DNA of 64,000 nucleotides from Streptomyces bottropensis ATCC 25435 (GCF_000383595.1 NZ_KB911581.1:5539519-5603518); one strand, 5' to 3'. Positions 25,015 to 51,469 are shown, counted from the first letter of the stretch. The notes: generated by a model from the letters alone, not told the origin. Numbers and translations are program-made.

Positions 25015-25415
25015 GTATTCCCCATACGCGTGGGGGTCTATCCCTTTTCGCCCGTCTCTACAGCGACCAGTTCCGGGTATTCCCCATACGCGTGGGGGTC
25101 TATCGTACCGAGCTCTGCGCACAGGCCAGACTCACTGAGTCTTCCCCACCGCGTTGGGGGTCATCCCCCCGCCAGCAGGGATCCGGCAGGGTGTTTGGGT
25201 CTTCCCCACACACGGTGGGGCACCAGCCCAAGGCGTGCGCGTCGGCACGGGCAGTCCAAGGATCGAGCGACGCCACCCATGGCGCGGTCAGCAAAGCTGT
25301 CGGCGGCACTCGCCCAGCAGCCCACTTCACTTCTTCCTGCCCTGCGGCAGCAGCACCTCAGTTCCCTCCGCCAGTGGTCACCACCAGGTTGTTCCCCACG
25401 TCGGTTGTGGTTGCC
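25015..25415 (+). CRISPR. CRISPR array A: 4 recognisable type I-E-like repeats plus decayed remnants
   Basis: 29-bp repeats start at 25015, 25077, 25139 and 25199, with 31-33-bp spacers. The first two share GTATTCCCCATACGCG followed by TGGGGGTCTATC. The third and fourth are increasingly changed (CCGCGTTGGGGGTC; ACACACGGTGGGGC). A strongly decayed copy (GTTCCCCACGTCGGTTG) lies at ~25391, three periods further on. Repeat type, period (~61) and leader match arrays B and C, so it belongs to the same type I-E family, though it is 6 kb beyond the transposase genes. An IS5-type element is inserted at its far end. Confidence 0.75.
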
Positions 25416-28165: not shown

Positions 28166-28261
28166 TCGCCGATCAACACCAACTGCCCCTGATCTTCGCG
28201 GTGTTGTTCCTGACAGCCTCGGCGGGCCCATGACCGTGACGAGACGGTGAGGAAGGTGGAC

Positions 28262-29647: not shown

Positions 29648-29651
29648 GCCC

Positions 29652-29876
29652 ATGGCCAGGCCCTCCACCAGCGGCAACTGGACCGCCTTCCTGGCCGAGC
29701 TGCACGGCTTCTTCGAGGTCTGCGACGCCTGCGTCGACCAGGCGCTGGCCGCCCACTTCGGCTTCGACACCGCCGTCGACTGGATCACCGTCTCGCTGGA
29801 GCTGTTCACCGAACACCTCCAGGCCCCACCCGACCAGCCCTCACCTGCGAACTTCCCGGAGAATCACCGTGATTGA
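29652..29876 (+). CDS. Small helical protein between transposase and ATPase
   Basis: The 74-residue acidic helical protein (SGNWTAFLAELHGFFEVCDA, VDQALAAHFGFDTAVDWI) begins 4 bases after the transposase stop, and its end overlaps the ATPase start. Position in the operon suggests an accessory factor linking transposase and ATPase. No family recognised. Confidence 0.6.
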   Translation: MARPSTSGNWTAFLAELHGFFEVCDACVDQALAAHFGFDTAVDWITVSLELFTEHLQAPPDQPSPANFPENHRD

Positions 29877-30681
29877 GAAACTGCAGGCCCACTACGGGTT
29901 CGAGCGCATGCCCTTCGGCCGCAACCTCGCGCCGGGCATGCTGCACCGGCACGACTCCCACAACCAGGCCGTCGCCCGCATCTCCTGGTGCATCGCCGAA
30001 CGCTCCATCGGCGTGGTCACCGGCGAGGTCGGCGCCGGCAAAACCGTCTCCGTCCGCACCTGCCTGGACGCCCTCGACCCGTCGAAGTACACCGTCATCT
30101 ACATCCCCAACCCGCTGATCGGGGTCCGCGGCATCCACGAGGAGATCGTGGGCGCCTTCGGCCAGACCCCCTCTCACCTGGGCTCCCGCCTCGCCGTCCA
30201 GACGGCCAGGGCCCTGCTGTCCGAGCGGGAGGAGCGCGGACGCACCCCCGTCCTCGTTCTGGACGAGGCCCACCTGCTCTCCTACGAACAGCTGGAAACC
30301 GTCCGTATGCTCACCAACCAGGGCATGGACCAGGACTCCCCACTGTCCTGCCTGCTGGTCGGCCAGCCCACCCTGAGACGGACCATGAAGCTCGCCGTCC
30401 TGGCCGCTCTGGAGCAGCGGACTGCTCTGCGTTACACGATGCCGGGCATGACCTCGACCGAGACAACCAGCTACGTCGCCCACCACCTGAAGATCGCCGG
30501 GCGCCCGGACCAGCTGTTCACCGAGGACGCCCTCACGCTGATCCACACCACCTCGCGCGGCTATCCCCGGGCGGTCAACAACCTTGCCCTGCAGGCCCTG
30601 GTCGCCGCGTTCGCCACCGGCAAGAACCTCGTCGACGAGGCCGCCGCCCGCGCGTCCGTGAGCGAGGTGGTCGGCGACTGA
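29869..30681 (+). CDS. ExeA/TniB-like AAA ATPase of the transposon
   Basis: The 270-residue ATPase starts IEKLQAHYGFERMPFGRNL. Walker A is VVTGEVGAGKTVSVRTCLD, Walker B is VLVLDEAHLLSYEQLE, sensor 1 is LSCLLVGQPTLRRTM, and a sensor 2-type TTSRGYPRAVNNLALQAL follows. ATPases of this type act as MuB/TnsC-like target-selection proteins for DDE transposases. The GTG at 29869 lies within the preceding small gene, as usual for coupled translation. Confidence 0.85.
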   Translation: MIEKLQAHYGFERMPFGRNLAPGMLHRHDSHNQAVARISWCIAERSIGVVTGEVGAGKTVSVRTCLDALDPSKYTVIYIPNPLIGVRGIHEEIVGAFGQTPSHLGSRLAVQTARALLSEREERGRTPVLVLDEAHLLSYEQLETVRMLTNQGMDQDSPLSCLLVGQPTLRRTMKLAVLAALEQRTALRYTMPGMTSTETTSYVAHHLKIAGRPDQLFTEDALTLIHTTSRGYPRAVNNLALQALVAAFATGKNLVDEAAARASVSEVVGD

Positions 30682-30763
30682 GATGTCCGTTTCACACTTC
30701 CCGGTGTCCCGCCGGTCTCAGAGCACACGTGGATGTCAGTGCGTTGAGCTAACGTCACGCGGC

Positions 30764-31246
30764 ATGAGTGATCAACAGCATGAGGTCATCGTCCGCCGTG
30801 CCCAGCCAGCCGATGTGGATGGCCTGGTCGCATGCAGCAGCGCGCTGTTTGCCGAAGATGCCGGGACGAGAGATCCGAGCGTCGACGTGAGTTGGCCTCG
30901 CGAGTTCGGACCTGCACGTTTCGCTGCCGGCATAGACGACCCGACCAGGCTCCTTCTCGTCGCGGACTGCGACGGGCAGGTCGTCGGACACCTCACCGGG
31001 TCCGTGGCTGAAGGATCTGCGATGAGGCCGGTCAAGGTCGCGACGCTCGTGAGCATGTATGTCCAGCCGGCCCACCGCCGCGGCGGGCTCGGAGCACGTT
31101 TAGTCGCGCAGTTCTCGGCCTGGGCGAAGGAAGCGGGGGCCGAACTCGCCGAGGTGACCGCGTACTCCAGCAACGCCGATGCGATCCGCTTCTACGAACG
31201 GAACGGTTTCGCGAGTCAGTCAGTGACGTTGCAGACCGCTTTGTGA
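30764..31246 (+). CDS. GNAT-family N-acetyltransferase
   Basis: The 160-residue protein has EVIVRRAQPADVDGLVAC at the N terminus, LLLVADCDGQVVGHLTGSVA, the acetyl-CoA loop VSMYVQPAHRRGGLGARLV and the terminal SNADAIRFYERNGFASQ. All are classic GNAT features. The ATG at 30764 is the start that fits family length. A strong hairpin follows at 31269-31306. It separates the two convergent transposition modules and may be cargo of either. Substrate unknown. Confidence 0.8.
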   Translation: MSDQQHEVIVRRAQPADVDGLVACSSALFAEDAGTRDPSVDVSWPREFGPARFAAGIDDPTRLLLVADCDGQVVGHLTGSVAEGSAMRPVKVATLVSMYVQPAHRRGGLGARLVAQFSAWAKEAGAELAEVTAYSSNADAIRFYERNGFASQSVTLQTAL

Positions 31247-31268
31247 GATCAGGCCGCAGCCGGCATCG

Positions 31269-31306
31269 CGGCCCGGGGATCGGCGCTCGCGCTGATCCCC
31301 GGGCCG
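31269..31306 (+). terminator. Hairpin terminator after the GNAT gene
   Basis: CGGCCCGGGGATC (31269-31281) and its exact complement (31294-31306) form a 13-bp stem with a 12-base loop, starting 23 bases after the GNAT stop. There is no T-run, as is common in streptomycetes. Confidence 0.75.
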
Positions 31307-31451
31307 AACCACCGGCACCTCGCCGAAGAAAACGACACCTTGCCGACGACCGCCCCGCCAGGATGCCCACCGGCGGGGCTTCGCCGTCACACCCCGTCGG
31401 CATCGTGAACGCCGCCTTCGTCGGCATTTTCAGCGCCGGGCAACACCGGTG

Positions 31452-31523: not shown

Positions 31524-32390
31524 TCAGTCGGGGTGACGTTGGGTGGGGTCGAGGCGGCTGAGGACGGCGCGCACAAGGTCCCGGCTGTAATGAGGTAGCG
31601 GTGCGGCTGCGCTGTGTGGGGTGGGCGGGTTCGTCGGACCTGTCCTATCGGCCTCCTGTGGGCCGGGGCCGTCGTGCTGTTCCCAGAGCAGGTAGGTGAT
31701 TTTGGCCCACTGGCGGAAGTTGCCGTGGCAGGCGACGTCGTCGATCCACAGCAGTTCGTCGGTGGGTACGTGTGCCCACAGCGGGTGGTACTCGGGGATG
31801 ACGGTGAGGACTTCTGCGGGTGTGAGGGGCTTGTAGCGCTGCCAGACGAGGATGCGGGAATCCAGCGCCGGACGGTTCTTGATCTTCTGGTAGCAGGTTT
31901 CGGCTCCGACCAGGACGACGGCGAGGCGGGTGTCCTCGTCGTCCCAAAGCTCGCGGATGAATTCGAAGGCCCGGGTGTCCAGCCACTGCGCTTCGTCGAC
32001 GACCAGGACGCGCGAGGTCTCTGACAGTGCTTCCTTGAGCATGGCTTCGCAGCGGGTGCTGTTGAGGGGGGCCTCGCCCGGTAGGTCGAGCTTTTTGTAC
32101 AAGGCGGCGCGTAGGGCCTGGATTTTGGCGGAGCCGACTTTCATGCGGAGCGTGGTGTGGGGAGCGAGGTCGTCGAGGTGGCTGTTGACGGCGAAGGTTT
32201 TGCCCAGGCCGACGCCGCCGTGGACGCACATGATGGCGCCCTTGCCGGCGTCGGCGTTGAGGGTGGTGACGAGGTTGGCGTAGGTCTCTGCGCTGGCCTG
32301 GGTCAGCATGGCGCGGGCGCCGGGCAGGCCCATGTAGTGATAGTTGGGGTCGGTGGCCGGCTGGCTCTTGGGCGTGGTCGGGTGGGTCAC
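31524..32390 (-). CDS. TnsC/MuB-like AAA+ ATPase in the cas operon
   Basis: The 288-residue ATPase is encoded last in the type I-E operon. Walker A is VHGGVGLGKTFAVNSHLDD (residues 57-75), Walker B is SRVLVVDEAQWLDT (Asp-Glu at 132-133), and AVVLVGAETCYQKIKN is the sensor 1 strand. It is close in size to MuB/TniB and lacks the long extensions of Tn7 TnsC. Such ATPases form filaments on target DNA and recruit the DDE transposase. The GTG start overlaps the transposase stop (GTGA), so the two are coupled. Its place after cas6e, where cas1-cas2 normally stand, implies a role in choosing the target together with Cascade; this is inference. Confidence 0.85.
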   Translation of the reverse strand: MTHPTTPKSQPATDPNYHYMGLPGARAMLTQASAETYANLVTTLNADAGKGAIMCVHGGVGLGKTFAVNSHLDDLAPHTTLRMKVGSAKIQALRAALYKKLDLPGEAPLNSTRCEAMLKEALSETSRVLVVDEAQWLDTRAFEFIRELWDDEDTRLAVVLVGAETCYQKIKNRPALDSRILVWQRYKPLTPAEVLTVIPEYHPLWAHVPTDELLWIDDVACHGNFRQWAKITYLLWEQHDGPGPQEADRTGPTNPPTPHSAAAPLPHYSRDLVRAVLSRLDPTQRHPD

Positions 32391-33973
32391 TGGGTCTCCT
32401 GGGGTTTGGGGTCGGAGAGGGGTTTTGTCCAGCGGGTGGAGTCGGGCTTGGGCCGGTTGAGGAGGTCGGGTCGGGCTTCGGCGTGCAGGTCTGCTTCCGG
32501 TGTCTGCAACTCGCGCAGCTGGGCAGATGCTTGGCTGCCGGTGAGCCGGTTGAGGGGCTCGGGCGCGGCGGCGATGCTGGTGGCGGCGTAGCGGGGGTTG
32601 GCGTTCTTGCGGGCCCGGCGGGCTTTGGCGGCGTAGCGGTCGGCTTCGCGTCGGCGGGCGTTGCGTAGTGCGCGGGATTGCCGGGGGCTCATCTCGTCGC
32701 TGCGGAAGGCGGAGCCGCGGTAGGTGAGGGTGTGAGCGTCGTAGAGTTCGACGCGGTGGTAGTGGTGGGGTTCGTGGCGCAGGCGGACCATCTCGCCGGC
32801 GCTTGAGTGGCCGTGCATCCAGTCGCCGACGTAGTAGGCGCTTTTCCAGCGGACGCCCTTGCTGGTGATCTTCCGGGGTGGGCCGGCGTCGGTGAGGGTG
32901 TAGGTGTGCAGGTCGGCGGGGTCGAGGGTGTCGATGGGGGTGAGGTCGGCGTGCCAGGCTTGGGCGGGGGTGCACCGGTGGAGGCGGGCAATGGTGTGGT
33001 CGTTGTTCCACCAGTCCACCCAGTCCAGGACGACGGTGATGAAGGTTTCGTAGTCGAGGAGGTCGTCCAGGGCCCACAGGGGCTGGCCGCGGCGGTCGCG
33101 ACGGCTTCGGGGGGTGTGGGCGTAGCCGGGCAGTCCTTTGAACAGCATGTGCTTGGCGGCGCCGTTGATGGCTTCGACGGTGCCTTTGAGGTGGGGGCTG
33201 TAGGGCGGCAGGACGATCAGTTCGGTGCCGAACTTTTTGAACGCCTCGTCCACGCACTTGCCCAGGAAGTCACGGCCGCGGTCGGTGCGGATCTTGCGGG
33301 GGATGCCGCCGAAGGGCCGGTGGTGATCCGTGCAGAGGATGGCGTCGCGGGCGGCGGCCAGGATGGCGTCCTGGCTGGGCTGGTGGGGCGTGATGGCCAG
33401 CCCGCAGATGACGGCGGTGGTGTGGTCGATGAACCAGGTGATCCAGGGTTTACGGCGGCGCCCGTCGACGTTGACGAAGACGCTGGCTTCGACATGGTCC
33501 GTCTCCCAGACGTCGTTGCGGTTGCCGTGGGGGCGCAAGGCGTGCACATCGTGTCGGCGGCGGGCGGCTTCACCCCCTCTGAGGGCGACACGCTGGCCGG
33601 GGCTGAGTTCCCGGTCTACGGCGCGGTAAAAGGTTGCCTGGGATACGCGGGGCGGGTTGCCAAAGATGCCGTCGGCGACGAGTTCGCGGTAGGTAGCTGC
33701 GGCGTTGCCGTTCCATCGGGCCAGGGCTTCATGCATGGCCGGCGTGAGGGTGAAGTGGCGGCGGCCTTGGGGGGTGTAGGTGCCGTGGTGGGCGTCGGCG
33801 TTGTCCATCCATCGGCGCACCGTGCGCCAGTGGACGTCGAACCCGGCGGCGACGGTACGGACATCGTGGTGAGCGAGGCGGTCTGCGGCGCGCAGGCGCA
33901 GCAGTCGGCGTACGGCGGCAGCGCGCAGGGAGGTGAGGTCGTAGGGGCCGGTGGGTGGTGGTAGGGCTGGCAC
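32387..33973 (-). CDS. TnsB/MuA-like DDE transposase in the cas operon
   Basis: The ~528-residue transposase has an N-terminal helix-turn-helix (VRTVAAGFDVHWRTVRRWMD), an integrase core and a C-terminal beta-barrel (WKSAYYVGDWMHGHSSAGEM). The core holds catalytic Asp159 (DVWETDHVEASV), Asp231 (RKIRTDRGRDFLGK) and Glu267 (HLKGTVEAINGAAK). The basic tail (KARRARKNANP) may contact the ATPase, as in MuA and TnsB. All three catalytic residues are present. The frame is open upstream without ATG; GTG 33973, 47 bases after the cas6e stop, is the best start, with AAGGAAG upstream. No TnsA-like endonuclease is encoded nearby, so replicative (cointegrate) transposition would be expected. Confidence 0.85.
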   Translation of the reverse strand: MPALPPPTGPYDLTSLRAAAVRRLLRLRAADRLAHHDVRTVAAGFDVHWRTVRRWMDNADAHHGTYTPQGRRHFTLTPAMHEALARWNGNAAATYRELVADGIFGNPPRVSQATFYRAVDRELSPGQRVALRGGEAARRRHDVHALRPHGNRNDVWETDHVEASVFVNVDGRRRKPWITWFIDHTTAVICGLAITPHQPSQDAILAAARDAILCTDHHRPFGGIPRKIRTDRGRDFLGKCVDEAFKKFGTELIVLPPYSPHLKGTVEAINGAAKHMLFKGLPGYAHTPRSRRDRRGQPLWALDDLLDYETFITVVLDWVDWWNNDHTIARLHRCTPAQAWHADLTPIDTLDPADLHTYTLTDAGPPRKITSKGVRWKSAYYVGDWMHGHSSAGEMVRLRHEPHHYHRVELYDAHTLTYRGSAFRSDEMSPRQSRALRNARRREADRYAAKARRARKNANPRYAATSIAAAPEPLNRLTGSQASAQLRELQTPEADLHAEARPDLLNRPKPDSTRWTKPLSDPKPQETQ

Positions 33974-34020
33974 GGGTGTTCGGGTGGCTTCCTTGGGGTG
34001 GTGGGCGTCGGGGCGGTGGG

Positions 34021-34728
34021 TCAGGCGGGGGCGAGGGTGAGCAGGCCGGCACCGTAGGGCTTGCCGCGGCCGATGCCGGTGAGTAGGGCGCGGCTGAGCT
34101 GGTGGGGGTCGGTGATGGTGGCCAGGCCGTCGAAGCGGGTCAGTGCGTGCATGGGGCCGGGAGAGTGGGCTTGTTCGCCGGGCTTGTGGGCGCGGCGTGT
34201 GCGGGGGAAGCGAGCGGGGGTGATGTCGGTGGTGGCCAGGGTGAGGCCGGCTTGGTGGGCGCGGCGCTGCCACCAGGCGAGGGCGTCGTCGCCGTAGAGC
34301 GCGACGATTTTTCTGCCGTGCTTGTTGTCGACGGGGTGGTGGTCGTCCAGGACGCGGCGGACGGCGCTGGCGTTGGCGGTGATGCGGTAGCGCACCGCTC
34401 GGCCGGGGGTCAGGGCCTGGAACATGGGGTGCAGGGGTCGGGTTTCGGCGGTGCCGTAGTGGTGGGGCAGGCGGGTGAGGTCGGGCGGCTGGTGGGACTG
34501 GACGAGCAGGGTGGGTGGGGTGTCGTCGGTGGCGTCTTCCAGGCGGAAGAGCAGGCCGGCCTGCTGCCGGGGGTTTTCGCCGAGGTCGTCGGGGGCCAGG
34601 AGCATCACGCTCTTGTGCAGGCTGACGGCGTCGGCCAGGTCACGGCGGGCGGCCGGGCTGCGGCGGTTGAGGCGGATCCGGGTCAGTGTCGCTGTGGTGG
34701 CGAGGGCGGCGGTTGGGGTGCTGGTCAC
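34021..34728 (-). CDS. cas6e: Cas6e, CRISPR RNA endonuclease
   Basis: The 235-residue type I-E processing nuclease cleaves the precursor RNA within each repeat and stays bound to the 3' hairpin. Visible are the N-terminal ferredoxin-like start (TLTRIRLNRRSPAARRDLAD), His38 in SLHKSVMLLAPDD (the position of the general acid/base in Cas6e), and the C-terminal Gly-rich loop GIGRGKPYGAGLLTLAPA. The GTG start overlaps the cas5e stop (GTGA). All features expected for activity are present, so the hairpin repeats in the three arrays are likely substrates. Confidence 0.9.
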   Translation of the reverse strand: MTSTPTAALATTATLTRIRLNRRSPAARRDLADAVSLHKSVMLLAPDDLGENPRQQAGLLFRLEDATDDTPPTLLVQSHQPPDLTRLPHHYGTAETRPLHPMFQALTPGRAVRYRITANASAVRRVLDDHHPVDNKHGRKIVALYGDDALAWWQRRAHQAGLTLATTDITPARFPRTRRAHKPGEQAHSPGPMHALTRFDGLATITDPHQLSRALLTGIGRGKPYGAGLLTLAPA

Positions 34729-35516
34729 GGGGTGGCGTCCTGGCGGATGTAGGCGGTCAGTTCGGTGAGTGCGGGCGGCGGGGCGTACAGGGCGGCGGGC
34801 AGGGGTTCGGTGGTGTGCCAGGTGCGGCGGGTCTTGTGGAAGCGCCGTGTGGGAGTGAAGTCATGGGGGACATCGGCGACTTCGCGTTCGCTACGCGCGG
34901 CAGGCACGTGGGAGGGCGGGTGTTCCCAGACGAAGGCGACAGGCACGGTGGCCTGGTCTGCGCGGGGTGGTGTGGTGAGGCTGAGCGGGACGTGGTGGAG
35001 GAGTTCACCGACGGGGTCGGGGCGCGGGCCGCCGAGGACGAGGGGTTCGTTGGGGAGGCAGGCGCGCCGGCCGAGGTAGGGGCCGAAGGCGGGTTGTTCG
35101 AGCCGCTGAGTGAGGTGTTCCAGGAACGGGTCGGGTCCTTGGACGGCGAGGGTGAAGACGGCGTCGGCGAGGTAGACCCGTTTGGTGATGAGGGTGGACT
35201 TCTCGCGGGGGCGGTAGGCGCCGCTGCTGGTGCGCAGGCCTTGGCGGTGCGGGCGGCCGCCGCCGACGGTGTGGTAGTCGGTGTGCCGGGTGCCGGGGCG
35301 GTCGACGCGGACGGTGAACGTCAGGTCGGTGTAGGGGGTTTTGCCGGTGGCCGGGTCGGGGGCGAGGGCTTCGTTGCGGGGGCGTGCGTCGGCGGCGGCG
35401 AACAGGCCGATGAGGGCCGAGCGGGAGGGGAAGGGGAGAGTGTCGCGGTAGTGGAAGGCGGCGTGTTCTCCGAACGACATCAGCGGTGCGGCCAGGCGCA
35501 GCAGGATGCCGTTCAT
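34725..35516 (-). CDS. cas5e: Cas5e, Cascade 5'-handle-binding subunit
   Basis: The 263-residue protein is a typical type I-E Cas5: GILLRLAAPLMSFGEHAAFH, YRDTLPFPSRSALIGLFAAA, a central thumb-like part (TDYHTVGGGRPHRQGLRTSS) and TKRVYLADAVFTLAVQG. It caps the 5' handle of the CRISPR RNA and contacts Cas8e. The start at 35516 overlaps the cas7e stop (ATGA); a much longer open frame upstream is an artefact of GC bias inside cas7e. Confidence 0.9.
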   Translation of the reverse strand: MNGILLRLAAPLMSFGEHAAFHYRDTLPFPSRSALIGLFAAADARPRNEALAPDPATGKTPYTDLTFTVRVDRPGTRHTDYHTVGGGRPHRQGLRTSSGAYRPREKSTLITKRVYLADAVFTLAVQGPDPFLEHLTQRLEQPAFGPYLGRRACLPNEPLVLGGPRPDPVGELLHHVPLSLTTPPRADQATVPVAFVWEHPPSHVPAARSEREVADVPHDFTPTRRFHKTRRTWHTTEPLPAALYAPPPALTELTAYIRQDATP

Positions 35517-36703
35517 ACGGGGGTACCGGTGGGCAGGGCCGCGTTTTTGGTGAGGGCGTCGATGAGGTCGTCGAGGCCGGCGTGGGCGGTGCCGAGGTGG
35601 TCGACGGGGCCGGGGTGCAGGGTGGCGTAGCCGCAGCCGACGAGGCGGCGGGTGCCCAGCAGCCGGTTCAGCCCGGCGGCGTGCTCGGACAGGGCTGTGA
35701 CGGCGGGGGCGGTGTAGCCGCCGCCGGGGGCGTGCTTGACGGGCTGCTCGAAAGCGGCGGCGTAGGAGACGGGGCGGCGGTCGCGGATCGTGTAGTGGAC
35801 CAGGTGGGGGTAGGTGTGCGGGGCGGTGGAGGTCTTCTTCGCGCCGGGCATGACGTCGATGAAGGCGTCGGCGAACAGGCGCAGCAGGTGCAGAGCCTGT
35901 TCGTGGTCGCCGTTCAGGTTGCGGGTCAGTTCGGTGAGGTTGACCGTGGCGTAGCGGTAGAGCAGGCCGGTGGTGAAGAACGCGGTCTGCAGGTGGGCGC
36001 TGCCGGCCTCGTTCGGGGCTGCCCAGTCCTCGACGGCGGTGAAGTAGTCGGGCTGGGGTGAGCTGGCGTGGACGGTGAAGGCGGGTGCCATCTGCACGGC
36101 GCCGTCGACGTGGGCGTCGGGCACCTCGGCGAGCATGCGGCCGAAGAGGTTGATGGTCGCGGTGCGCCGGCGGATCACGGAAGCAACCCTGGGCGTGGGC
36201 AGGACGGCCTCCGCCTTGGGCTTCTTGCGGGTGCCCTTGGCCGGGGCGGTCTGTGCGGCGGTTTCCTTGGCGAGGGCTTCTTCGAGGTGCGGGCGGTGTT
36301 CGGTGCACAGGTCGGTGAGGTCGTCGAGGACGTCGCGCGGCAGGTAGAGGGTGGCCGAGGTGATGCCGCGCTGGTTTTCCTCGGTCTTGAGGCCTTCCGT
36401 GGTGGCCGAGCGCACGATCTGGGTTCCTGCGAAGGCGGCCAGGTCGGGGGGCCAGCCGGCCGCGCGCAGGGCGTCGGCCACCCGCAGGGGCAGCATGCGG
36501 GTGCGGGCGGCGTGCTCGTCCAGGACGTCCTCCAGGCGCAGGCGCACGGCCCGCTTCCAGGACTGCGAGGACACCAGGGCGCGGACTACGCCGCCCAGTT
36601 GCAGGGTCTTGGGCAGGTCGTCCTCTCCTCGGTTGAGGAGGGAGGCGGGCAGCGGGTGCAGGATGTGGAAGTCGGCGTAGCGGGCGGGGGCGTAGGCGGT
36701 CAT
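35513..36703 (-). CDS. cas7e: Cas7e, Cascade backbone subunit
   Basis: The 396-residue protein starts with YADFHILHPLPASLLNRGED followed by LPKTLQLGGVVRALVSSQSW and KRAVRLRLEDVL, the conserved RNA-binding N terminus of type I-E Cas7. The central part includes MQMAPAFTVHASSPQPDYFT-like VDGAVQ regions and a C-terminal helical part (FADAFIDVMPGAKKTSTA). Six copies line the guide in E. coli Cascade. A linker rich in Lys, Thr and Ala (TAPAKGTRKKPKAEA) near residues 145-160 is longer than usual and may mark an insertion. It starts 2 bases after the cas11 stop, so it is tightly coupled. Confidence 0.9.
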   Translation of the reverse strand: MTAYAPARYADFHILHPLPASLLNRGEDDLPKTLQLGGVVRALVSSQSWKRAVRLRLEDVLDEHAARTRMLPLRVADALRAAGWPPDLAAFAGTQIVRSATTEGLKTEENQRGITSATLYLPRDVLDDLTDLCTEHRPHLEEALAKETAAQTAPAKGTRKKPKAEAVLPTPRVASVIRRRTATINLFGRMLAEVPDAHVDGAVQMAPAFTVHASSPQPDYFTAVEDWAAPNEAGSAHLQTAFFTTGLLYRYATVNLTELTRNLNGDHEQALHLLRLFADAFIDVMPGAKKTSTAPHTYPHLVHYTIRDRRPVSYAAAFEQPVKHAPGGGYTAPAVTALSEHAAGLNRLLGTRRLVGCGYATLHPGPVDHLGTAHAGLDDLIDALTKNAALPTGTPV

Positions 36704-36704
36704 G

Positions 36705-37367
36705 TCACTGCTCCTTGGATGTCAGGGTGTGCAGGGTGAGGAAGTAGTTCTCGCGCCAGCGGGCGGCGGTCTCGAGGTGGTCGTCGTCCCACCAGGCCAG
36801 GTCCTCCAGCAGGACGGCGAAGTCGAGGCGGGCGGCGCCGCGGCTGTTCAGGTGGCCGGTCAGCGTCCACAGCCTCGGGTGCAGCAGCGAGGTGTCGAGC
36901 CGGGTGAGGGTTTTGACGCGGTTGGTCATGGTGGCTTCTTTGAAGCCGTAGCGGGCCACGGCGATGGCGAGGTGGGTGCCGAGATCGGGACGGCGGCGCC
37001 AGGGCCGCTCAGCCGTGCTCGCCGCCGGTGCCGGACCCGACGGGTTGGATGCTGGAGCGGTGTTCGCGGTCGGTGTGGTGGCGTCCTGGTCCTTGCCGGG
37101 GGCAGGCTGTTCCGGCTGGTAGGGGCCTTCTTCGTGGGGCAGGTCGGGGTGCAGGGCGATGAGTGCGGCCACGGTGTAGTGGGCGCGGCGTGCTCCGAAG
37201 CCGGCGATGTGCCGGGTGAGGTGCTCGGGCATCCGGGAGCACTCTGCGACGGGCCGTCCGAAGCCCGAGTTGAGGTCGGCGCGGATGCCGTTGACCGCGC
37301 ACAGGGTGATGACCTGGTGGACGAAGTCGTCGTAGTGGGCGCGGCGTTGCGCGGTGGTGACGGGCAT
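36705..37367 (-). CDS. cas11: Cas11 (Cse2), Cascade small subunit
   Basis: The ~220-residue protein fits Cse2: a basic helical N-terminal half (RRAHYDDFVHQVITLCAVNG; IRADLNSGFGRPVAE) and a C-terminal half ending LLEDLAWWDDDHLETAARW and RENYFLTL. The two are joined by an unusually long Pro/Ala linker (about residues 80-115), which is absent from E. coli Cse2 (160 residues). It stabilises the displaced target strand. ATG 37367 is used because the frame upstream of it is not conserved-looking. It lies directly between cas8e and cas7e, as in standard I-E operons. Confidence 0.85.
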   Translation of the reverse strand: MPVTTAQRRAHYDDFVHQVITLCAVNGIRADLNSGFGRPVAECSRMPEHLTRHIAGFGARRAHYTVAALIALHPDLPHEEGPYQPEQPAPGKDQDATTPTANTAPASNPSGPAPAASTAERPWRRRPDLGTHLAIAVARYGFKEATMTNRVKTLTRLDTSLLHPRLWTLTGHLNSRGAARLDFAVLLEDLAWWDDDHLETAARWRENYFLTLHTLTSKEQ

Positions 37368-37428
37368 AGGGGCGGCAGCCTCCGAAGGCGGCAAGAAAGA
37401 GTGGGCAGAGGGATGTGGTGAGGGAGGA

Positions 37429-39051
37429 TCAGCGGCTGCGCAGGCGCAGCTGGGCCAGGGCGGTGGCGACGGCTTCCGCGGCGCGGAAGTGCTGGGCGAT
37501 CGCCGGGCGGGTAGCGGTGCGCAGGGCGTCGATGGCGTCCGCGGCGAACGCCGCGCGGGCGCTGCGGGCGGGTTCGTTCAGCAGGTTCCAGAAGGTGGCC
37601 TCGGCGCGGGGCCAGTACAGGGTGCGGGCGCTGCGGGTCCAGGGCGGCAGGTGGCGGGGGCTGCCGGCGTTGGTGGTCTGCTTCCAGGCTTCCTGGGAGA
37701 GGCGGTCGAGGTGGGCGCCGATCTCTTCGGCGGCCTTGCGGCATGCGGCGATCCGCTCGGCCGCGGCTGGGTCGCATTCCTGCATCCAGGGCCAGATCGG
37801 CGGGGTCAGGGCTGTGTACCAGGTGCGGTTGGTGGTCTTGCCGTCCTGGTCGAATCCGTAGACCCGCACCCGCAGGGCGGCGCGCAGGTCGGGGGGCAGG
37901 TCGTTGAGGGTCGTGAAGGCGTCGGGTCGCTGGACGGTGTAGCGGCCTTTTCCGCTCTTTGCCTGGGTGCCTTTGCGGTCGTCCTCGTCGCCCGCCAGCA
38001 GCAGCGCGTCCAGGTCGCGCCACAGGGCCCGGTCGGCGTCCGCGCGGCGTGGTCGGTGGCGTCGGGTGACCGGTTCGTCCGCATGGAAGTGATGGATGAG
38101 GTACGGGTCGAGGGCCGGGAGTTTCTTCTGGGTGGCCCAGGTCAGGTAGGCGTCGGTCACGTGGCGTCCGTCCGGTGCGGGGATGAGGAGGACGGCGTGA
38201 CGCGAGCGGCCGGTCAGCAGACGGCCCGGTGAGGACACCGGCGGCGGCGCGGTATCGGGGTCCGGGCCCTCGACGGGGTCACCGTCGTCGTCGGGGTCGG
38301 GGTGGGGCAGCGGTTCCTCCCACGGGCAGTGGTCCACTGTGTCCGGCCAGGACGAGTCGGGCTTGGGGATGCCGGCCAGGAGGGTCTCGTACAGGGTCCG
38401 GCCCAGGGGGTGGAAGGACAGACTCGAGCGCAGTGGGCCGGCTTTAGCCCGGTTGAGGGAGCGATCGCCTACGGTGCGCACGGACCATTGTCCGGCCGCG
38501 CCGTAGTAGTGGTGGATGAGCATGTGCCACAGCGCCTGGGCGCTGGGCACCGGCTGCGGGTCGGTGTCCGTATGCGGGCTGAGCCAGGAAAGGTTGTTGC
38601 CCTCGGGACGGCCGAAGACCAGCTTGTTGACGCCGGCGCGTTGCGGGCACTGGCTGGCCAGTCTCGGGTCTTGCAGGAACGGCCGCGCCGGGTGGAACAG
38701 GTCCCAGATGTAGGCGTCGAAGTAGGCGTGAACGGCGTCGGGGTCGAACCCGGCGGGATGCGCCAGTAACTCCCTTCGGCGGGCAGCCCACTGACGTGCC
38801 GTCATGCGCCCCGGTCCTCGTGCGTCCAGGCCGCTGACCCGTGCGGCCATGACCACGAGTAGGCGCAAGACGGCAGATGCCGTCGGCGGGACGGGAAGTG
38901 CCAGGTCCTTGATGAGGTGGGCGCGCAGCAGCACGTCCCGCCATCCCAGCTCCTCCTGGTGCCCGTCCGGGAAGAGGACGGGAATACACGGTTCTTTGTC
39001 GGTCTCAAAACGCGGGGAAGACACACAGGATCCATTGCAGGGTGCGAACAA
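37429..39051 (-). CDS. cas8e: Cas8e (Cse1), Cascade large subunit
   Basis: The 540-residue large subunit recognises the protospacer-adjacent motif and, in ordinary type I-E systems, recruits Cas3. The family start (CIPVLFPDGHQEELGWRDVL) is followed by LRLLVVMAARVSGL, DAYIWDLFHPARPFLQDPRL, GKTTNRTWYTALTPP and the C-terminal four-helix bundle (AGSPRHLPPWTRSARTLYWP). Length is normal. Nothing is fused to it and no TniQ-like domain is present. It is the first gene of the leftward operon ending in the transposase ATPase. Confidence 0.9.
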   Translation of the reverse strand: MFAPCNGSCVSSPRFETDKEPCIPVLFPDGHQEELGWRDVLLRAHLIKDLALPVPPTASAVLRLLVVMAARVSGLDARGPGRMTARQWAARRRELLAHPAGFDPDAVHAYFDAYIWDLFHPARPFLQDPRLASQCPQRAGVNKLVFGRPEGNNLSWLSPHTDTDPQPVPSAQALWHMLIHHYYGAAGQWSVRTVGDRSLNRAKAGPLRSSLSFHPLGRTLYETLLAGIPKPDSSWPDTVDHCPWEEPLPHPDPDDDGDPVEGPDPDTAPPPVSSPGRLLTGRSRHAVLLIPAPDGRHVTDAYLTWATQKKLPALDPYLIHHFHADEPVTRRHRPRRADADRALWRDLDALLLAGDEDDRKGTQAKSGKGRYTVQRPDAFTTLNDLPPDLRAALRVRVYGFDQDGKTTNRTWYTALTPPIWPWMQECDPAAAERIAACRKAAEEIGAHLDRLSQEAWKQTTNAGSPRHLPPWTRSARTLYWPRAEATFWNLLNEPARSARAAFAADAIDALRTATRPAIAQHFRAAEAVATALAQLRLRSR

Positions 39052-39291
39052 AAGAGGGACTTCAGGGAAGATTCGTGCGCCGGGGCGGGAATTCTGCGCA
39101 CGCTATGACGCCGGGGGCGCATCAGGGCGGCAGGAAAGAGAAGGAAGGGGAGACTGTCAGGGCGCGGGCCGGGTCAGGCCACACCGACGTGCCGCCCCGG
39201 CTACACGGGGACACCAAGGGTGTGGTGCACACAGCGCAGCAGGCAGGGCGCGCGAGACCGGACTCGAACGTCAGTCCGGCTCCGCGTTTCC

Positions 39292-39320
39292 ATATTAGCT
39301 ATAGACAAGCAGCTTCCGAA
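39292..39320 (-). promoter_or_regulatory. Possible promoter of the cas8e-to-tnsC operon
   Basis: On the - strand, TTCGGA (39320-39315) and TAATAT (39297-39292) are 17 bases apart within an AT-rich island (about 39290-39380) that stands out from the GC-rich surroundings. It lies 240 bases before cas8e. The -35 match is weak. Confidence 0.35.
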
Positions 39321-39417
39321 CCACATAGTTCAGCCGAAAATTACCGGTCGGTTCCCCTTTTTTGAACGTAAGTCATTTCCGGACCGCACTCCTCAATCCG
39401 TGCCGACGGTGCGACAA

Positions 39418-39537
39418 CTGTCACTTCTCATTTCAGTGTCACCGCCGGTTCTCGCTCAGATGTCAGGCATTCCTGTCTGGCCCCAGCTAGCGGCAGGGTG
39501 GCATCGGATGAGAAGCCCTGGCGGCCTGGGATGAGAA
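39418..39537 (+). repeat. Composite motif module L (candidate transposon end or operator)
   Basis: It lies between cas8e and cas3. Two motifs read right (TTCTCATTTCAGTGTCAC at 39425-39442; TTCTCGCTCAGATGTCAG at 39449-39466) and two read left (TGAGAA ends at 39514 and 39537; TTCTCATCCGATGCCAC and TTCTCATCCCAGGCCGC). The first 58 bases match module R in inverted orientation at 40/58 positions; over the first 27 the match is 23/27. Motif positions are the same to within 2-3 bases in both modules. Confidence 0.65.
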
Positions 39538-39659
39538 TTCGCCGCCTTCTGTCTTCTGGCATCGCGCTGCTGCGTGCCTCGGGCAGGAAGATCCGGCCTT
39601 CCTGCAGCGGCGATGCCCGTGAGGGGAGTTCGGGCGGGCGGTGTGAGGCGGGAAGCGGC

Positions 39660-42521
39660 TCAGTCTTCGGTGTGGACGAGTCCCAGGGCGTCGTCGAGGT
39701 GCAGACGGTGCCGGCCGAAGCGCACCGGCCGGGAGGGGTCGCCGGCGTCCTGCGGGAGCAGGACGAGGTCGGCGAGGAGGGCGTGGCTGCGCCAGGAGGC
39801 GGGGATGTGGTGGTCTCTTGTGCGGCCGGCGACCCAGGCGGCGGGGACGGGCAGGGTGTGCTGGAGGATCGTGCGGATCTGGGCGGTGGTCGGTTTGCGG
39901 TGCTCGGGCAGCGGCCGGGTGCCGGCCGCGTCCAGAGTGAGGCGGCCGCCGGACATGCGGTAGACGGGCAGGAGACGGCGGGGCATGGCGCCCAGGCGGG
40001 TGGCGGCCTCGCGGGGGTGCAGGTTCTGGCGGTGCAGGTCGGACAGCGAGAGGGTGTCGTGCCAGGCCGGCACGAGGTGCAGGGCACTGTGGTGTTCCTC
40101 GGTGCGGGTGCGGGCCTGGTGCAGGGTGTGGCTGCGGCGCAGGGCGGCGTCGGTGCGGGCGAGGGCGTCGGCGTCTCCGTGTACGGCTTCCACGAGCTGC
40201 TGCACGTCGTCGGGCAGGGTGAGCGGCTGCTCGGGCCGTCGGGCGAGGTAGGCGGCGGTGGCGAGCGGCAGGAACGGGGAGTCCAACGGGCGCCAGGCGG
40301 GCGGCAGGAGGGTGCGGCCGCGGTGGTCGGTGGGCTCCAGGACGATCAGGCGGGGGACGTCGCCGCAGAGCCAGTCGGGCCGCTTGATGTGGTCGAAACG
40401 CCACAGGCGGCCCAGGCGTTGCAGGAGGGTCTGCAGGGGGGCCAGGTCGCTGACCATGACGTCAACGTCGACGTCCAGGCTCATGTCCAGCAGGCTGGTG
40501 GTGATGACCACCAGCCTTCGAGGGCGCTCGCCGGTCGCCGACAGGGCGGTGCGGACGCGGCGGGTGAGGGCCTCACGTTGGAAGCCCGGCAGGCGGGCGT
40601 GCAGCAGGAGCAGCTGGCCGTCGGGGCCGCCGTCCGGCCAGTTGAGGGCGGTTGTCAGGTGTGCGTAGGTGGTCTGGGCGTCGGCCATGGTGGCGCAGTA
40701 GACGGCCGCGCAGCCGCCCGAGCGGGCGACGGGGGCGATCTCCTGGGTGATGCGCCCCAGTCGGCTCTCGCGGGCCGGGGCGTCCTCGGGGTCGGTGCAG
40801 GAGGGGTGGCGCACCGGGTGGAGACGGAGGTCGGCGCGGCGGCGGTGGCGGTCGGCGTGGGCGTCGGCCGCGGCTGGGTCGATGCGGGTGAGGGAGGCGT
40901 CTGAGGCGGCGGCGTAGAGCCAGCCCGGGTAGGGGGGCCGGCAGTCCAGGTGGGCTGTTGCGGGGTGCGGGTGGCCGGCGCCGTCGAGATAGCTGCGCAC
41001 GAGCTGGCTGCTGATGTGGCCGGGCAGAGTCGCGGACAGCAGCACCACGGGGCAGCCCAGGGCGCCGAGCCAGTGCAGCAGCCGGGACAGTGTCTGCCGC
41101 ATGAACGGGGGCAGGGCGTGGACTTCGTCGACGATGACGGTCCGCCCGCACAGGGCCAACATGCGCAGGGCGCTGAAGCGGACCGGAAGGGCGGCCATGA
41201 GGGCCTGGTCGTGGGTGGCGACGGTGAACTGGGCCAGCAGGGCCCTGTCCCAGCCGCGCAGCCAGCCGTCGGGCACCGTGACGCGTTCTTCGGGCCGCTC
41301 CCCCGCAGTCGGCCTGCCCTCATCACCGTAGCCGTCGTCGCTGTCGGGCCAGTAGGCGTCGCTGGTGGAGGGTTCACGGGCGGCCAGGCGGTGGTCGGTG
41401 TAGGCGGTGTTGTTGTAGCTGTGACTGTGGACCAGGGAGACCGGGGCGTGCTCGGGATGGTGGGCCGCAACGTAGGCCTCGAGGAGGTCGTAGGCGGCAT
41501 CCGTGGTGGCCATGGTCGGCAGCAGCCACAGAATGCCTGAGGTGTCACCGGAGGCGTTGAAGATCCGTGCTGCTTCCAGCGCGGTGACGCTCTTTCCGCC
41601 ACCGGTGGCATCGGTGACCACCAGGATGCCGGGCCCCTTCTCCCCCACCACGGCGGGCAGTTGCCCGATCATCGAGGCCTGCAGGGCGTTCGGCCGCTCC
41701 AGGCCGCCGTGCGCCTGGGTGAACGGCACCTGCGGCAGAGTGATACGGACAAGCCCGGACTCCTCGACCACGCCGGGAGCGTCCCGGACGGCCAGGGAAA
41801 AGTGCTCGCCGGCGCCAAAGGCCGGCGCCTGGGCCTTGGGCAGCCAGTAGTGGCGCTGGCTGGCCAGCCGGTCCGCGATGACGCCGACCCCGGTGATCAG
41901 CACGGCCGCCGGCACCGACACGTCCGAGGGCACCGCGGTGGCGCCGGTCAGATGACGCAACAGGGCGAAGTAGCGGCGGCGCACGTCCTGCCAGGCCGAC
42001 CCGCCCAAGGCGAGGTTGACTCGAGATGCCTTGGCTGCGCCATCGATGTCGACCTGCAGGAACCGGCCGTGATGGCCGCCCAGGATCTGCGCAATCAACA
42101 CACCGGGGCTGTCGGAAGTGTCCGCCGGATAGCCTGCCTCGGCCAGCAGGTGCAGCACACTGTGCATGGACGCCCGCTCATGCGGCATACGCCGCCAGTT
42201 ACCGGTGTCGCTGCGCAGGGTGTCACTGACCCGGGCCCAGGGATGCGCCTCCTGTTCCTGGAACGCGGACAACTTGCCCAGATCGTGCAGGCCAGCGATG
42301 AACATCACCTGGCAGCGCGCCTGAGCCAGAGTGAGCCCCAGTCCGGCGGCGATCAGCCGGCGCTGGCCGCGGGTCAGGTACCCGTCCCAGACCGCACCCG
42401 CGAGCGCCGCGACATCCAGCAGATGGAACAGCAGCGCATACACCGCCCGCTCTCCGCGGTCGAACTTGCCCCACGGCGACAGGTTGATTCCGTCGCGCCG
42501 GGCATCCTCCCGCACCCCCAC
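39660..42521 (-). CDS. cas3: Cas3, HD nuclease-helicase of type I-E
   Basis: The 953-residue protein has an N-terminal HD nuclease domain (LLFHLLDVAALAG; His79-Asp80 in FIAGLHDLGKLSAF; RASMHSVLHLLAEAG; His-His at 150-151 in ILGGHHGRF). An SF2 helicase follows: Walker A VTDATGGGKSVTALEAARIF, motif II VIVDEVHALPPFM, motif III VVLLSATLPGHI, motif V SLDVDVDVMVSDL and motif VI LLQRLGRLWRFD. Length and order are normal and no key residue is missing. In ordinary systems it degrades DNA marked by Cascade. It is transcribed in the same direction as cas8e but set apart by 608 bases containing module L. Confidence 0.92.
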   Translation of the reverse strand: MGVREDARRDGINLSPWGKFDRGERAVYALLFHLLDVAALAGAVWDGYLTRGQRRLIAAGLGLTLAQARCQVMFIAGLHDLGKLSAFQEQEAHPWARVSDTLRSDTGNWRRMPHERASMHSVLHLLAEAGYPADTSDSPGVLIAQILGGHHGRFLQVDIDGAAKASRVNLALGGSAWQDVRRRYFALLRHLTGATAVPSDVSVPAAVLITGVGVIADRLASQRHYWLPKAQAPAFGAGEHFSLAVRDAPGVVEESGLVRITLPQVPFTQAHGGLERPNALQASMIGQLPAVVGEKGPGILVVTDATGGGKSVTALEAARIFNASGDTSGILWLLPTMATTDAAYDLLEAYVAAHHPEHAPVSLVHSHSYNNTAYTDHRLAAREPSTSDAYWPDSDDGYGDEGRPTAGERPEERVTVPDGWLRGWDRALLAQFTVATHDQALMAALPVRFSALRMLALCGRTVIVDEVHALPPFMRQTLSRLLHWLGALGCPVVLLSATLPGHISSQLVRSYLDGAGHPHPATAHLDCRPPYPGWLYAAASDASLTRIDPAAADAHADRHRRRADLRLHPVRHPSCTDPEDAPARESRLGRITQEIAPVARSGGCAAVYCATMADAQTTYAHLTTALNWPDGGPDGQLLLLHARLPGFQREALTRRVRTALSATGERPRRLVVITTSLLDMSLDVDVDVMVSDLAPLQTLLQRLGRLWRFDHIKRPDWLCGDVPRLIVLEPTDHRGRTLLPPAWRPLDSPFLPLATAAYLARRPEQPLTLPDDVQQLVEAVHGDADALARTDAALRRSHTLHQARTRTEEHHSALHLVPAWHDTLSLSDLHRQNLHPREAATRLGAMPRRLLPVYRMSGGRLTLDAAGTRPLPEHRKPTTAQIRTILQHTLPVPAAWVAGRTRDHHIPASWRSHALLADLVLLPQDAGDPSRPVRFGRHRLHLDDALGLVHTED

Positions 42522-42712: not shown

Positions 42713-43168
42713 GTGTTTCCCCACAGCGTGGGGGTCTTTCCAGCAGTGCGGCGAGCTGTGCCATTCGCAGGCCGTCTTCCCCACACGCGTGGGGGGGTTC
42801 GTCCGCGCCGGTGAACACGACGAGGCCACATTCGACGTCTTCCCCACACGCGTGGGGTCTGTCCGCCGTCCGCGACCGTCACCACACCGATGCTGGGTCT
42901 TCCCCACGTGCGTGGAGGTCTGTCCAGGGTGTTGATACTGCCGAAGGTCCGCACAACGTCTTCCCCATACCCGTGGGGGTCTGCCATCGTCCAAGGTGAG
43001 GCCGACGGCGGGGTCCACGGCTTTTCTACCCTCACGTGGGGGTCCGTCCTGCAGCACGTCACCGTTCTCGCCCAATCTGCCGTCTTCCCCACACGTGTGG
43101 GGTCGTCCCACCCCGTAGTCCTTCTGCGTCTTCTTCGTGATGCCTTCCACACGCGTGGGTTCACCGCG
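42713..43168 (+). CRISPR. CRISPR array B: 8 degenerate type I-E-like repeats
   Basis: 28-31-bp repeats start at about 42713, 42774, 42837, 42897, 42958, 43020, 43082 and 43140, with a 60-63-bp period and ~32-bp spacers. The consensus is GTCTTCCCCACACGCG followed by TGGGGGTCTGTCC, with a CCCCAC/GTGGGG stem. Only a few copies are close to consensus; the sixth (TTTTCTACCCTCACG) and the last (TGCCTTCCACACGCG) are strongly changed. It lies divergently just upstream of cas3. The spacers appear unrelated to one another. Confidence 0.9.
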
Positions 43169-44133: not shown

Positions 44134-44216
44134 CCCCCAACGCGCGCGTGGGTCCGCTCCGTCCGGCGGCGCCAGCACCGGACTGCCCCGGTTCCCGGGG
44201 ATGCCTCCCGGGCGAG

Positions 44217-45573: not shown

Positions 45574-46365
45574 ATCTTCCCCGTACACGCGGGGGTCGTT
45601 CCTCAAGAACCACCGGGACCACTCGGAATCCTCCGTCTTCCCCGTACACGCGGGGGTCTTCCCAGCTCCTCACAGCTGCCGAGGGAGTAGTCGCCGTCTT
45701 CCCTTACGTCTGCGGGGTCTGCCGTTCGCCAACCGGGCACAGCTGTCCGTCGTCGCATTCCCCACACGCATGGAGATCGTTCCCTCTCATGCACCCAGGT
45801 AGCCCAGCTGGAGGTCTTCCCATATGTATGAGGGTCCATCGCGCAGCAGGTAGCGTGCCAGTGATTGAGGATTGCGCTCCCCACGCGTGCGCGGGGGGGT
45901 CCTTTCGGGCTGGATCCGCCTGACTACCCAAAACAGCCCTCTCCGTTCTTCAGAGCCCCAGGTCACGAAGAGTCTTCCCCACACGCGTGGGGGTCTGCCC
46001 GAAGCAGGCCGAGCTGCGCTGGAGCGCTTCGCGTCTTCCCCACCACGCGTGGGGGTCTGCCCACTGGCCGATGCACGCCGACCGCGGCGCCTTCATCTGC
46101 CGCACACGCGTGGGGGTCTTTCCTCTTCCTGTGCGTCACCGCGTTGGTCGCGAGTGTCTTCCCCACCCGCGTGGGGGTCTTTCCGCCCAGCCTACGCGGC
46201 ACCATTCGCCCGCGAGGCTTCCCCGCGCCCGTGGGGGTCTGTCCGCCGTGAACCCACCAGACCTCGCTCTGTGTTGGTCTTCCTCGCGCCCGCGGGGGTC
46301 TCTCCACGGTGACGCCTCCCCGGTCGTCCAGCCGCGCCTTTTCGCCACGCGCGTGGCGGTCAAGC
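45574..46365 (+). CRISPR. CRISPR array C: 13 degenerate type I-E-like repeats
   Basis: Repeats start at about 45574, 45635, 45696, 45755, 45814, 45874, 45972, 46033, 46095, 46156, 46216, 46277 and 46336. The usual period is 59-62 bases; one interval (45874-45972) is 98 bases, suggesting a lost or unrecognisable repeat. The first two share CCCCGTACACGCGGGGGTC; later ones have CCCCACACGCGTGGGGG or variants. Several copies keep the hairpin through paired changes, most clearly the last (GCCACGCGCGTGGC). The fourth to sixth are strongly diverged. Confidence 0.9.
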
Positions 46366-46479
46366 AATGAGGCGGGTATCTCAGCCCCTCACTCATGTCG
46401 AGCAGAGTCTCAGGATCGCCCCCAGCTCTCGCCCTGCAAGAACAAAAAGCAGCAGGTCAGATGACCAGTCTCTATGGCC

Positions 46480-46621
46480 TTCTCGTTTCAGTGCGCTGGA
46501 GATTCTCACGCAATGTCACTAAAGCCTTCTCACTCGCTGTCACCACTTCTCCGTCTTGAACAGCAAAGATGCATGACACCCAGATGACAACTACCGGTGA
46601 CACCGAAATGAAAAGTCGCAG
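46480..46621 (-). repeat. Composite motif module R (candidate transposon end or operator)
   Basis: It lies between array C and the RiPP cluster. On the - strand two motifs read inward (TTTTCATTTCGGTGTCAC from 46612; TTGTCATCTGGGTGTCAT from 46588). Three motifs read on the + strand (TTCTCGTTTCAGTGCGC at 46480, TTCTCACGCAATGTCAC at 46503, TTCTCACTCGCTGTCACC at 46527), with 23-24-base spacing. The arrangement mirrors module L, with one additional site. The sequence outside 46621 shows no similarity to that outside module L. Confidence 0.65.
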
Positions 46622-46936
46622 TGAAGGTGTCCGCCGGGTGGGCCGATCACCAGGCGATGGTCAGCGTGCGCAGTGCCGAGAGCCGCACGAGCGCCGAGTC
46701 TGCGATGAGCCTCCAGCCCCGTCCCTCGACCTGGGGCGTATGCGGATATGTGGGCGGCACGGACGCGTTCGCCGTCGTCCGACTCGCGCGGCGGATTCCC
46801 CGGATCGACTGACCCAGAGCTTCCCGCCCCTGCCTGGGCGGGCAGGCGGGACCCGCCGGTCCATAGCCCGAGGGCCCCGCAGCACCACCCGTGCGGGCAG
46901 CCGGCCCGCACCACCACAAGGAAGAAGGAAAAGCCC

Positions 46937-47044: not shown

Positions 47045-47067
47045 TCCTCACCACTAGTTCTCACCTG

Positions 47068-47107
47068 GGCGCCCTTCTCCGGCCGACGGTGGCCGGGGAA
47101 GGGCGCC
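47068..47107 (+). terminator. Hairpin between precursor and biosynthetic genes
   Basis: GGCGCCCTTCTCCGGCC (47068-47084) pairs with GGCCGGGGAAGGGCGCC (47091-47107), 16 of 17 pairs, with a 6-base loop. It probably works as an attenuator that makes the peptide message more abundant than the enzyme message, which is common in RiPP operons. Confidence 0.7.
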
Positions 47108-47131
47108 CGCCCTTTCGAGGAGGTTTCAGCA

Positions 47132-51403: not shown

Positions 51404-51469
51404 CCCCCGGCGACCCTCGCGCGGCGCCCCTCACCACGTCACCCTCCCCATCACGGAGACCCCTTTCCC

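What the first reader, a model, noticed from the sequence alone, without database searches (positions are those of the whole stretch)
31524..42521. Type I-E CRISPR-Cas operon in which a TnsB/TnsC-like transposase pair replaces cas1-cas2
Seen: the order cas8e-cas11-cas7e-cas5e-cas6e is followed, on the same strand and 47 bases after cas6e, by a DDE transposase (Asp159, Asp231, Glu267) and an AAA ATPase joined by a GTGA overlap. Standard I-E operons have cas1-cas2 in exactly this slot; neither is found anywhere in the window. Known: CRISPR-associated transposons that have been worked on belong to types I-F, I-B, I-D and V-K. I have a vague, unverified memory of a survey that mentioned Mu-type transposases linked to CRISPR loci, so novelty must be checked. 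Inference: Cascade with crRNA may guide insertion through the ATPase, or the transposase may have taken over spacer or DNA integration.
Basis: partly seen in the sequence, partly recalled or inferred. Interest (0 to 1): 0.95.

Follow-up and report, generated by a model that had tools for sequence, protein, structure and literature searches.

The report
CRISPR operon fused to telomeric transposon
A Streptomyces CRISPR system carries a transposase pair where its memory-making genes should be; this arrangement is already known (variant I-E5), but here I find its likely transposon end, show that its guides aim at linear plasmids and rival chromosome-end transposons, and find a branch whose DNA-shredding enzyme is dead.

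Summary
In detail: a complete I-E effector operon (cas3-8-11-7-5-6) is followed at 47 bp by a DDE transposase (TnsB/MuA-like) and a MuB/TnsC-like ATPase, with no cas1-cas2. The fixed eight-gene order recurs in about 25 Streptomycetaceae, and transposase and Cas8 each form one clade. It is not new: it was reported in 2019 and is classified as I-E5 (2025), linked to telomeric transposons.

What I add (computed): (1) A cluster of TTCTC-N-TGTCA sites just beyond the array, in the window and four relatives, looks like the transposon end; the tnsC side faces the chromosome end. (2) Spacers match linear plasmids and tnsC/tniB/tniA genes of rival telomeric transposons, with an AAN PAM. (3) The last repeat base copies the PAM base, a Cas1-Cas2 trait, although cas1 is undetected in 19 of 23 genomes. 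(4) Two related strains have lost the Cas3 nuclease ligands but keep helicase, Cascade, arrays and transposase. (5) DNA just outside the element is enriched for relatives' targets (exploratory).

Best reading: a telomere-linked transposon carrying a working RNA-guided effector. RNA-guided insertion is plausible but unproven; spacer integration by the transposase is disfavoured.

The parts
39660..42521 (-). cas3 (HD nuclease + helicase), active-site motifs intact
   Evidence: PF18019, PF22590, PF18395; HD ligands and six helicase motifs present
37429..39051 (-). cas8e
   Evidence: PF09481 9e-55, TIGR02547
36705..37394 (-). cas11 (Cse2)
   Evidence: PADLOC Cas11e 4e-103
35513..36703 (-). cas7e
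   Evidence: PF09344 6e-91
34725..35513 (-). cas5e (start approximate)
   Evidence: TIGR01868 1e-43
34021..34728 (-). cas6e
   Evidence: PF08798 4e-45
32387..33973 (-). TnsB-like DDE transposase, D159 D231 E267
   Evidence: rve and Mu-transpos_C; profile to ShCAST TnsB 2.6e-23; fold to ShCAST TnsB and MuA
31524..32390 (-). TnsC/MuB-like AAA+ ATPase
   Evidence: AAA_22; profile to MuB 8.9e-8; fold to MuB filament then ShTnsC
42713..43110 (+). CRISPR array 1, 7 degenerate repeats, about 61-nt pitch
45574..46366 (+). CRISPR array 2, degenerate repeats, about 61-nt pitch with gaps
25015..25227 (+). CRISPR array 3, on the far side of the operon
46480..46622 (.). candidate transposon end: TTCTC-N-TGTCA sites at 46503 and 46527 (24-bp pitch) plus degenerate inverted copies to 46620
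   Evidence: 4 exact sites in window vs 0.18 expected; aligned with two relatives; seen in G091 and G254 too
39417..39470 (.). second copy of the end-like sites, inverted, between cas3 and cas8
   Evidence: 54-nt inverted repeat with 46569-46622; sites 39425 and 39449; also in L072 and L079
43050..43081 (+). spacer matching Streptomyces plasmids 31/32, PAM AAC
46306..46337 (+). spacer matching plasmid genes incl. Tad-domain genes, PAM AAC; near-identical spacer in Streptomyces sp. CB01373
25044..25076 (+). spacer matching plasmid P4-type primase genes (88.9-93.8%)

Best explanation
The locus is an I-E5 element: a Tn7/Mu-like telomeric transposon that took over a whole I-E effector and array and has no cas1-cas2 of its own. 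Shown by computation: the operon is conserved and co-inherited; one transposon-end-like cluster of repeated sites lies beyond the array, and the tnsC side faces the nearer chromosome end in the oriented replicons examined, so the second boundary may be the telomere; guides match linear plasmids and rival telomeric transposons with a 5'-AAN PAM; Cas3 is intact in most members but has lost its HD ligands in one branch. Inferred: Cascade with crRNA binds the target, TnsC (MuB-like) assembles there and recruits TnsB held at the transposon end, so the element inserts into targeted linear replicons; intact Cas3 also lets the same guides destroy the target. Spacers were probably supplied by Cas1-Cas2 acting in trans, not by TnsB.
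For: Order fixed in about 25 loci. TnsB clade 29/29 at 100/100, Cas8 clade 32/32, Mantel r 0.86-0.95. TnsB profile and fold nearest ShCAST TnsB, TnsC nearest MuB/TnsC. End-like cluster beyond the array in window, HM190 and S. stelliscabiei, then found in G091 in sequence fetched afterwards, and in diverged G254; no other cluster among 2.3 Mb of fetched sequence apart from the cas3-cas8 intergenic copies. Cas-free sister elements sit near the ends of linear plasmids. Protospacers in plasmid genes with AAN in 12 of 13; five spacers from four strains hit tnsC of cas-free sister elements, reversed-spacer control 0; three more hit tniB/tniA-type genes. Targets cluster near chromosome ends, unlike spacers of the canonical array in the same genome. 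Cas3 HD ligands lost with helicase, TnsB and TnsC motifs kept in MnatMP-M17 and SID12488, arrays retained. Element flanks hold 4 protospacers of the collected spacer set in 12 kb versus 4 in 637 kb elsewhere.
Against: No TniQ in the genome, the usual link between Cascade and TnsC in known CASTs. Cas3 is intact in 20 of 22, which would cut targeted DNA rather than spare it for insertion. Flank protospacers lie 0.4-2.3 kb from the end, not at the fixed short distance of known CASTs (from memory), and orientation differs in one of four. I-E5 loci lie 46-335 kb from replicon ends where measurable, much further than cas-free relatives. The telomere join in this genome was not found. No empty site or target-site duplication of the element was seen.
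Confidence: 0.45

Rival explanations
1. CRISPR is cargo. TnsB/TnsC move the element without RNA guidance, perhaps to telomeres, and the I-E effector serves only as defence of the element and host against linear plasmids and competing telomeric transposons.
For: Intact Cas3 in 20 of 22; spacers match plasmids and rival tnsC/tniB genes with a PAM and do not closely match the element's own tnsC, 18-23 of 32-33; no TniQ in the own genome.
Against: The HD-dead branch keeps arrays, Cascade and transposase, hard to explain if interference were the only benefit; strict co-inheritance of tnsBC with cas; flank enrichment.
Confidence: 0.32
2. TnsB/TnsC are an alternative adaptation module that integrates new spacers in place of Cas1-Cas2 (the proposal credited to Faure 2019).
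For: cas1 undetected in 19 of 23 I-E5 genomes, yet arrays differ between close relatives and S. stelliscabiei has a run of near-identical repeats; TnsBC stand in the cas1-cas2 slot.
Against: Spacers are mostly 32 nt and the last repeat base equals the PAM's third base in 16 of 19 (AAC with C, AAG with G), the signature of Cas1-Cas2 I-E acquisition; a DDE transposase gives short target duplications, not a 29-nt repeat copy (established knowledge); a cas1-cas2 pair exists in trans in this genome.
Confidence: 0.12
3. The locus is a decaying relic: an old transposon-CRISPR fusion no longer active here.
For: Repeats in the window are degenerate (up to 9 of 29 mismatches), whereas 20 of 21 repeats of the canonical array in the same genome are identical; a 4-kb transposon has inserted next to tnsC.
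Against: All eight genes are open with intact catalytic motifs, and TnsB is 97% identical to that of S. stelliscabiei; window spacers still match current plasmids at 88.9-97%.
Confidence: 0.1

Closest known systems
CRISPR-Cas variant I-E5 (2025 classification, PMC12669027; telomeric transposons of Hsieh 2025)
   Same: I-E effector with active Cas3, no TniQ/TnsD, association with telomeric transposons
   Different: Nothing that excludes membership. Added here: candidate end sequence, AAN PAM, target classes, HD-dead branch
CasMu-I and CasMu-V (Altae-Tran 2023, PMC10910872)
   Same: MuA/MuB-like pair joined to a CRISPR effector
   Different: I-A or V effectors with interference lost (no cas3, or inactivated Cas12); here I-E with cas3
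Tn7-like CASTs (I-F3, I-B2, I-D, V-K)
   Same: TnsB and TnsC homology; array next to a putative transposon end with repeated sites
   Different: No TniQ; Cas3 present; telomere as presumed second boundary
Canonical Streptomyces I-E
   Same: Effector genes; AAN PAM as reported for S. avermitilis (review PMC12231136)
   Different: tnsB-tnsC instead of cas1-cas2; degenerate repeats

Membership tests
I-E5 | I-E effector operon with intact Cas3 HD | tested here: met
I-E5 | TnsB/TnsC-like pair in the operon, no cas1-cas2 in it | tested here: met
I-E5 | No TniQ/TnsD | tested here: met
   no TniQ in own genome, nor in 6 of 9 I-E5 genomes tested
I-E5 | Kinship to telomeric transposons | tested here: met
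   cas-free sister TnsB near ends of linear plasmids
I-E5 | Located at or bounded by a telomere | tested here: inconclusive
   contig rotated to dnaA; telomere join not found; relatives 46-335 kb from ends
CAST (RNA-guided transposon) | Defined transposon ends | tested here: inconclusive
   one end-like cluster found; second end not found
CAST (RNA-guided transposon) | Interference-dead effector | tested here: not met
   Cas3 intact in window; lost only in L090/L091
CAST (RNA-guided transposon) | crRNA-dependent insertion at fixed distance from protospacer | not testable with these tools
   flank protospacers at 0.4-2.3 kb are suggestive only
Adaptation module (Cas1-Cas2 replacement) | Spacer integration activity | not testable with these tools
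   indirect evidence against

The most novel reading that the evidence does not exclude
I-E5 is a dual-output system: Cascade with AAN-PAM guides, without TniQ, recruits MuB-like TnsC and TnsB to insert a telomere-bounded transposon near guided sites in linear plasmids and rival telomeric transposons, while Cas3 destroys other copies; one branch has dropped the nuclease and become insertion-only.
Probability: 0.3. Interest if true: 0.88.

Novelty: new member of a known kind. Interest (0 to 1): 0.58.

Why it matters
I-E5 is named but, in the reviews I could read, not tested experimentally. The PAM, target classes, candidate TnsB sites and a natural nuclease-dead branch give what is needed to ask directly whether a Cas3-bearing, TniQ-free system does RNA-guided insertion. 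Guides against tnsC, tniB and tniA genes would make it a CRISPR weapon in conflict between chromosome-end transposons.

Tried and rejected
Telomere search by the classic Streptomyces end sequence and by palindromes or large inverted repeats around the window: no join found. UvrD-HTH-DUF6083 trio as an I-E5 component: rejected, the helicase recurs in genomes without I-E5 and mostly near chromosome ends. Phage targets: none convincing for two arrays searched. Position just downstream of tnsC as the shared element end: rejected, the window's break there is an unrelated 4-kb insertion. The first CRISPR pattern missed the arrays of the HD-dead strains; found by repeats. First scan of tnsC targets timed out, redone. 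Contig G297:C33 was not the intended one. Hsieh 2025 and Faure 2019 full texts are not held.

Full report
Check of the observation. The DDE triad and the ATPase Walker motifs are invariant in relatives. Three arrays of about 61-nt pitch flank the operon and read on the plus strand, array 1 leading away from cas3.

Conservation. In 296 Streptomyces genomes the pair's homologues occur in 84, and most of the best matches follow cas5-cas6. A named-genome scan gave 43 relatives; the cas-linked ones are Streptomyces, Kitasatospora and Actinacidiphila, while cas-free ones are Nocardia, Dactylosporangium, Nonomuraea and others. Operon order does not vary where the contig is long enough. By Cas8 identity, 10 of 296 Streptomyces genomes carry this type. 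TnsB trees put all 29 cas-linked rows in one clade (100/100) against 31 cas-free rows; Cas8 trees put 32 of 32 in one clade beside canonical Streptomyces I-E; distances correlate at 0.86-0.95.

What the proteins are. TnsB is nearest to ShCAST TnsB by profile (2.6e-23) and fold, with MuA further down; the fold model is of moderate confidence (mean pLDDT 73.5). TnsC is nearest to MuB, with ShTnsC and VchTnsC close behind. TniQ is absent from the own genome. Cas3 has its HD ligands and six helicase motifs.

Known status. A review credits Faure 2019 with I-E in Streptomycetaceae lacking cas1-cas2 and carrying tnsB-tnsC, proposed as alternative adaptation (PMC12231136). The 2025 classification calls the telomeric-transposon CAST I-E5, lacking TniQ-TnsD, with active Cas3 HD and possibly dual function (PMC12669027). 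CasMu-I/V are the nearest Mu-type cases (PMC10910872). So the kind is known; this locus is a member. That the 2019 and 2025 descriptions mean the same system is my inference from their wording; the two primary papers were not readable here.

Telomere link. Cas-free TnsB homologues lie mostly within about 15 kb of the ends of linear plasmids. The own contig starts at dnaA, so a linear chromosome's ends would be joined mid-contig and the window may lie in an arm; the join was not found. The helicase of the trio at 2975-7513 recurs mostly near chromosome ends in other genomes. In HM190, G091, G254 and plasmid CP134205 the tnsC side faces the nearer end, at about 46, 102, 335 and 165 kb.

Candidate transposon end. 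Two TTCTC-N-TGTCA sites 24 bp apart lie 137 bp beyond the last repeat of array 2, followed by degenerate inverted copies; the window has 4 exact matches against 0.18 expected. HM190 and S. stelliscabiei carry the same block beyond their arrays. G091 sequence fetched afterwards has four sites just beyond its distal array, and diverged G254 has two upstream of cas3. A 54-nt inverted copy lies between cas3 and cas8 in the window, L072 and L079 but not in the other loci examined; it may be an operator or a second end.

Spacers. 109 spacers were collected from arrays of the window and eight other strains, mostly 32 nt. Their protospacers lie in Streptomyces plasmid genes with AAN upstream in 12 of 13 resolved cases. 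Five spacers from four strains hit tnsC of cas-free sister elements at 13-19 places each, none when spacers are reversed, while matches to I-E5 tnsC are only 18-23 of 32-33. Three more hit TniB or TniA-type genes, one beside TniQ. In whole genomes hits cluster near ends, for example 7.9, 8.5, 11.4, 15.1 and 32.6 kb; twenty spacers of the canonical array of this genome do not. The target-rich ends are also rich in mobile genes, so the clustering alone does not tell defence from homing.

Acquisition. The last base of the preceding repeat equals the third PAM base in 16 of 19 unambiguous cases (12 C, 4 G), as expected when Cas1-Cas2 copies a PAM base into the repeat (established knowledge of I-E). 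cas1 is undetected in 19 of 23 I-E5 genomes, several of them drafts; this genome has it in a canonical system nearby whose repeat differs. I therefore favour acquisition in trans.

HD-dead branch. In Streptomyces sp. MnatMP-M17 and SID12488, H, HD, HH and the last D of the Cas3 nuclease are R, RE, MG and G, while helicase, TnsB and TnsC motifs and arrays of 15-18 repeats remain. In MnatMP-M17 the cas8 match is split and one piece holds a stop, so decay there is not excluded. A function beyond nuclease interference would explain the pattern.

Flank enrichment (exploratory). Within 3 kb outside the candidate end, four elements hold 4 AAN-flanked protospacers of the collected set in 12 kb, against 4 in 637 kb elsewhere. 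One of them (window) suggested the test and is also one of the four counted elsewhere; the spacer sets overlap between strains; distances (0.4, 0.8, 1.6, 2.3 kb) are not fixed and one of four has the other orientation. It is a lead, not a proof.

Verdict.

Noticed in passing
window 27395-31445: A 4.05-kb insertion next to tnsC, ends TGTT...AACA, 9-bp duplication CCGGTGCCG, holding an rve/Mu-C transposase, an AAA ATPase and a GNAT gene. Relatives L073-L076 lack it at this site; a similar pair (62% and 56% identity) lies near the I-E5 of SID12488.
   Followed up: partly
L090, L091 (Streptomyces sp. MnatMP-M17, SID12488): Cas3 with H, HD, HH and D nuclease ligands lost but all helicase motifs kept, in an I-E5 operon.
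   Followed up: yes
G000:C1 about 5668297-5679300 (L129): Separate canonical I-E system with cas1 and an array whose repeats are identical in 20 of 21 copies.
   Followed up: partly
window 46938-52000: YcaO/TfuA peptide cluster beside the element; an S. stelliscabiei I-E5 spacer matches its presumed precursor gene, which also occurs on an S. europaeiscabiei plasmid.
   Followed up: partly
window 43444-44960: AbiV-type HEPN gene and a T5orf172/MUG113 gene lie between arrays 1 and 2.
   Followed up: no
window 2975-7513: HTH, DUF6083 and UvrD-like helicase genes recur near I-E5 loci; the helicase also occurs in other genomes, mostly near chromosome ends.
   Followed up: partly
G254:C1 10991017-10991448 (L146): A TniQ-family gene about 3 kb upstream of cas3 of a diverged I-E5 locus; could be a neighbouring transposon.
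   Followed up: no
window 11083-14223: Large Rhs-repeat protein with a pretoxin HINT domain.
   Followed up: no
spacers of S. stelliscabiei (G296_26), HM190 (G301_2087), SID12488 (G265_1334) and window 42742-42773: Four strains carry near-equal spacers for one coding site that differ mainly at synonymous positions, as if acquired repeatedly from homologous genes.
   Followed up: partly
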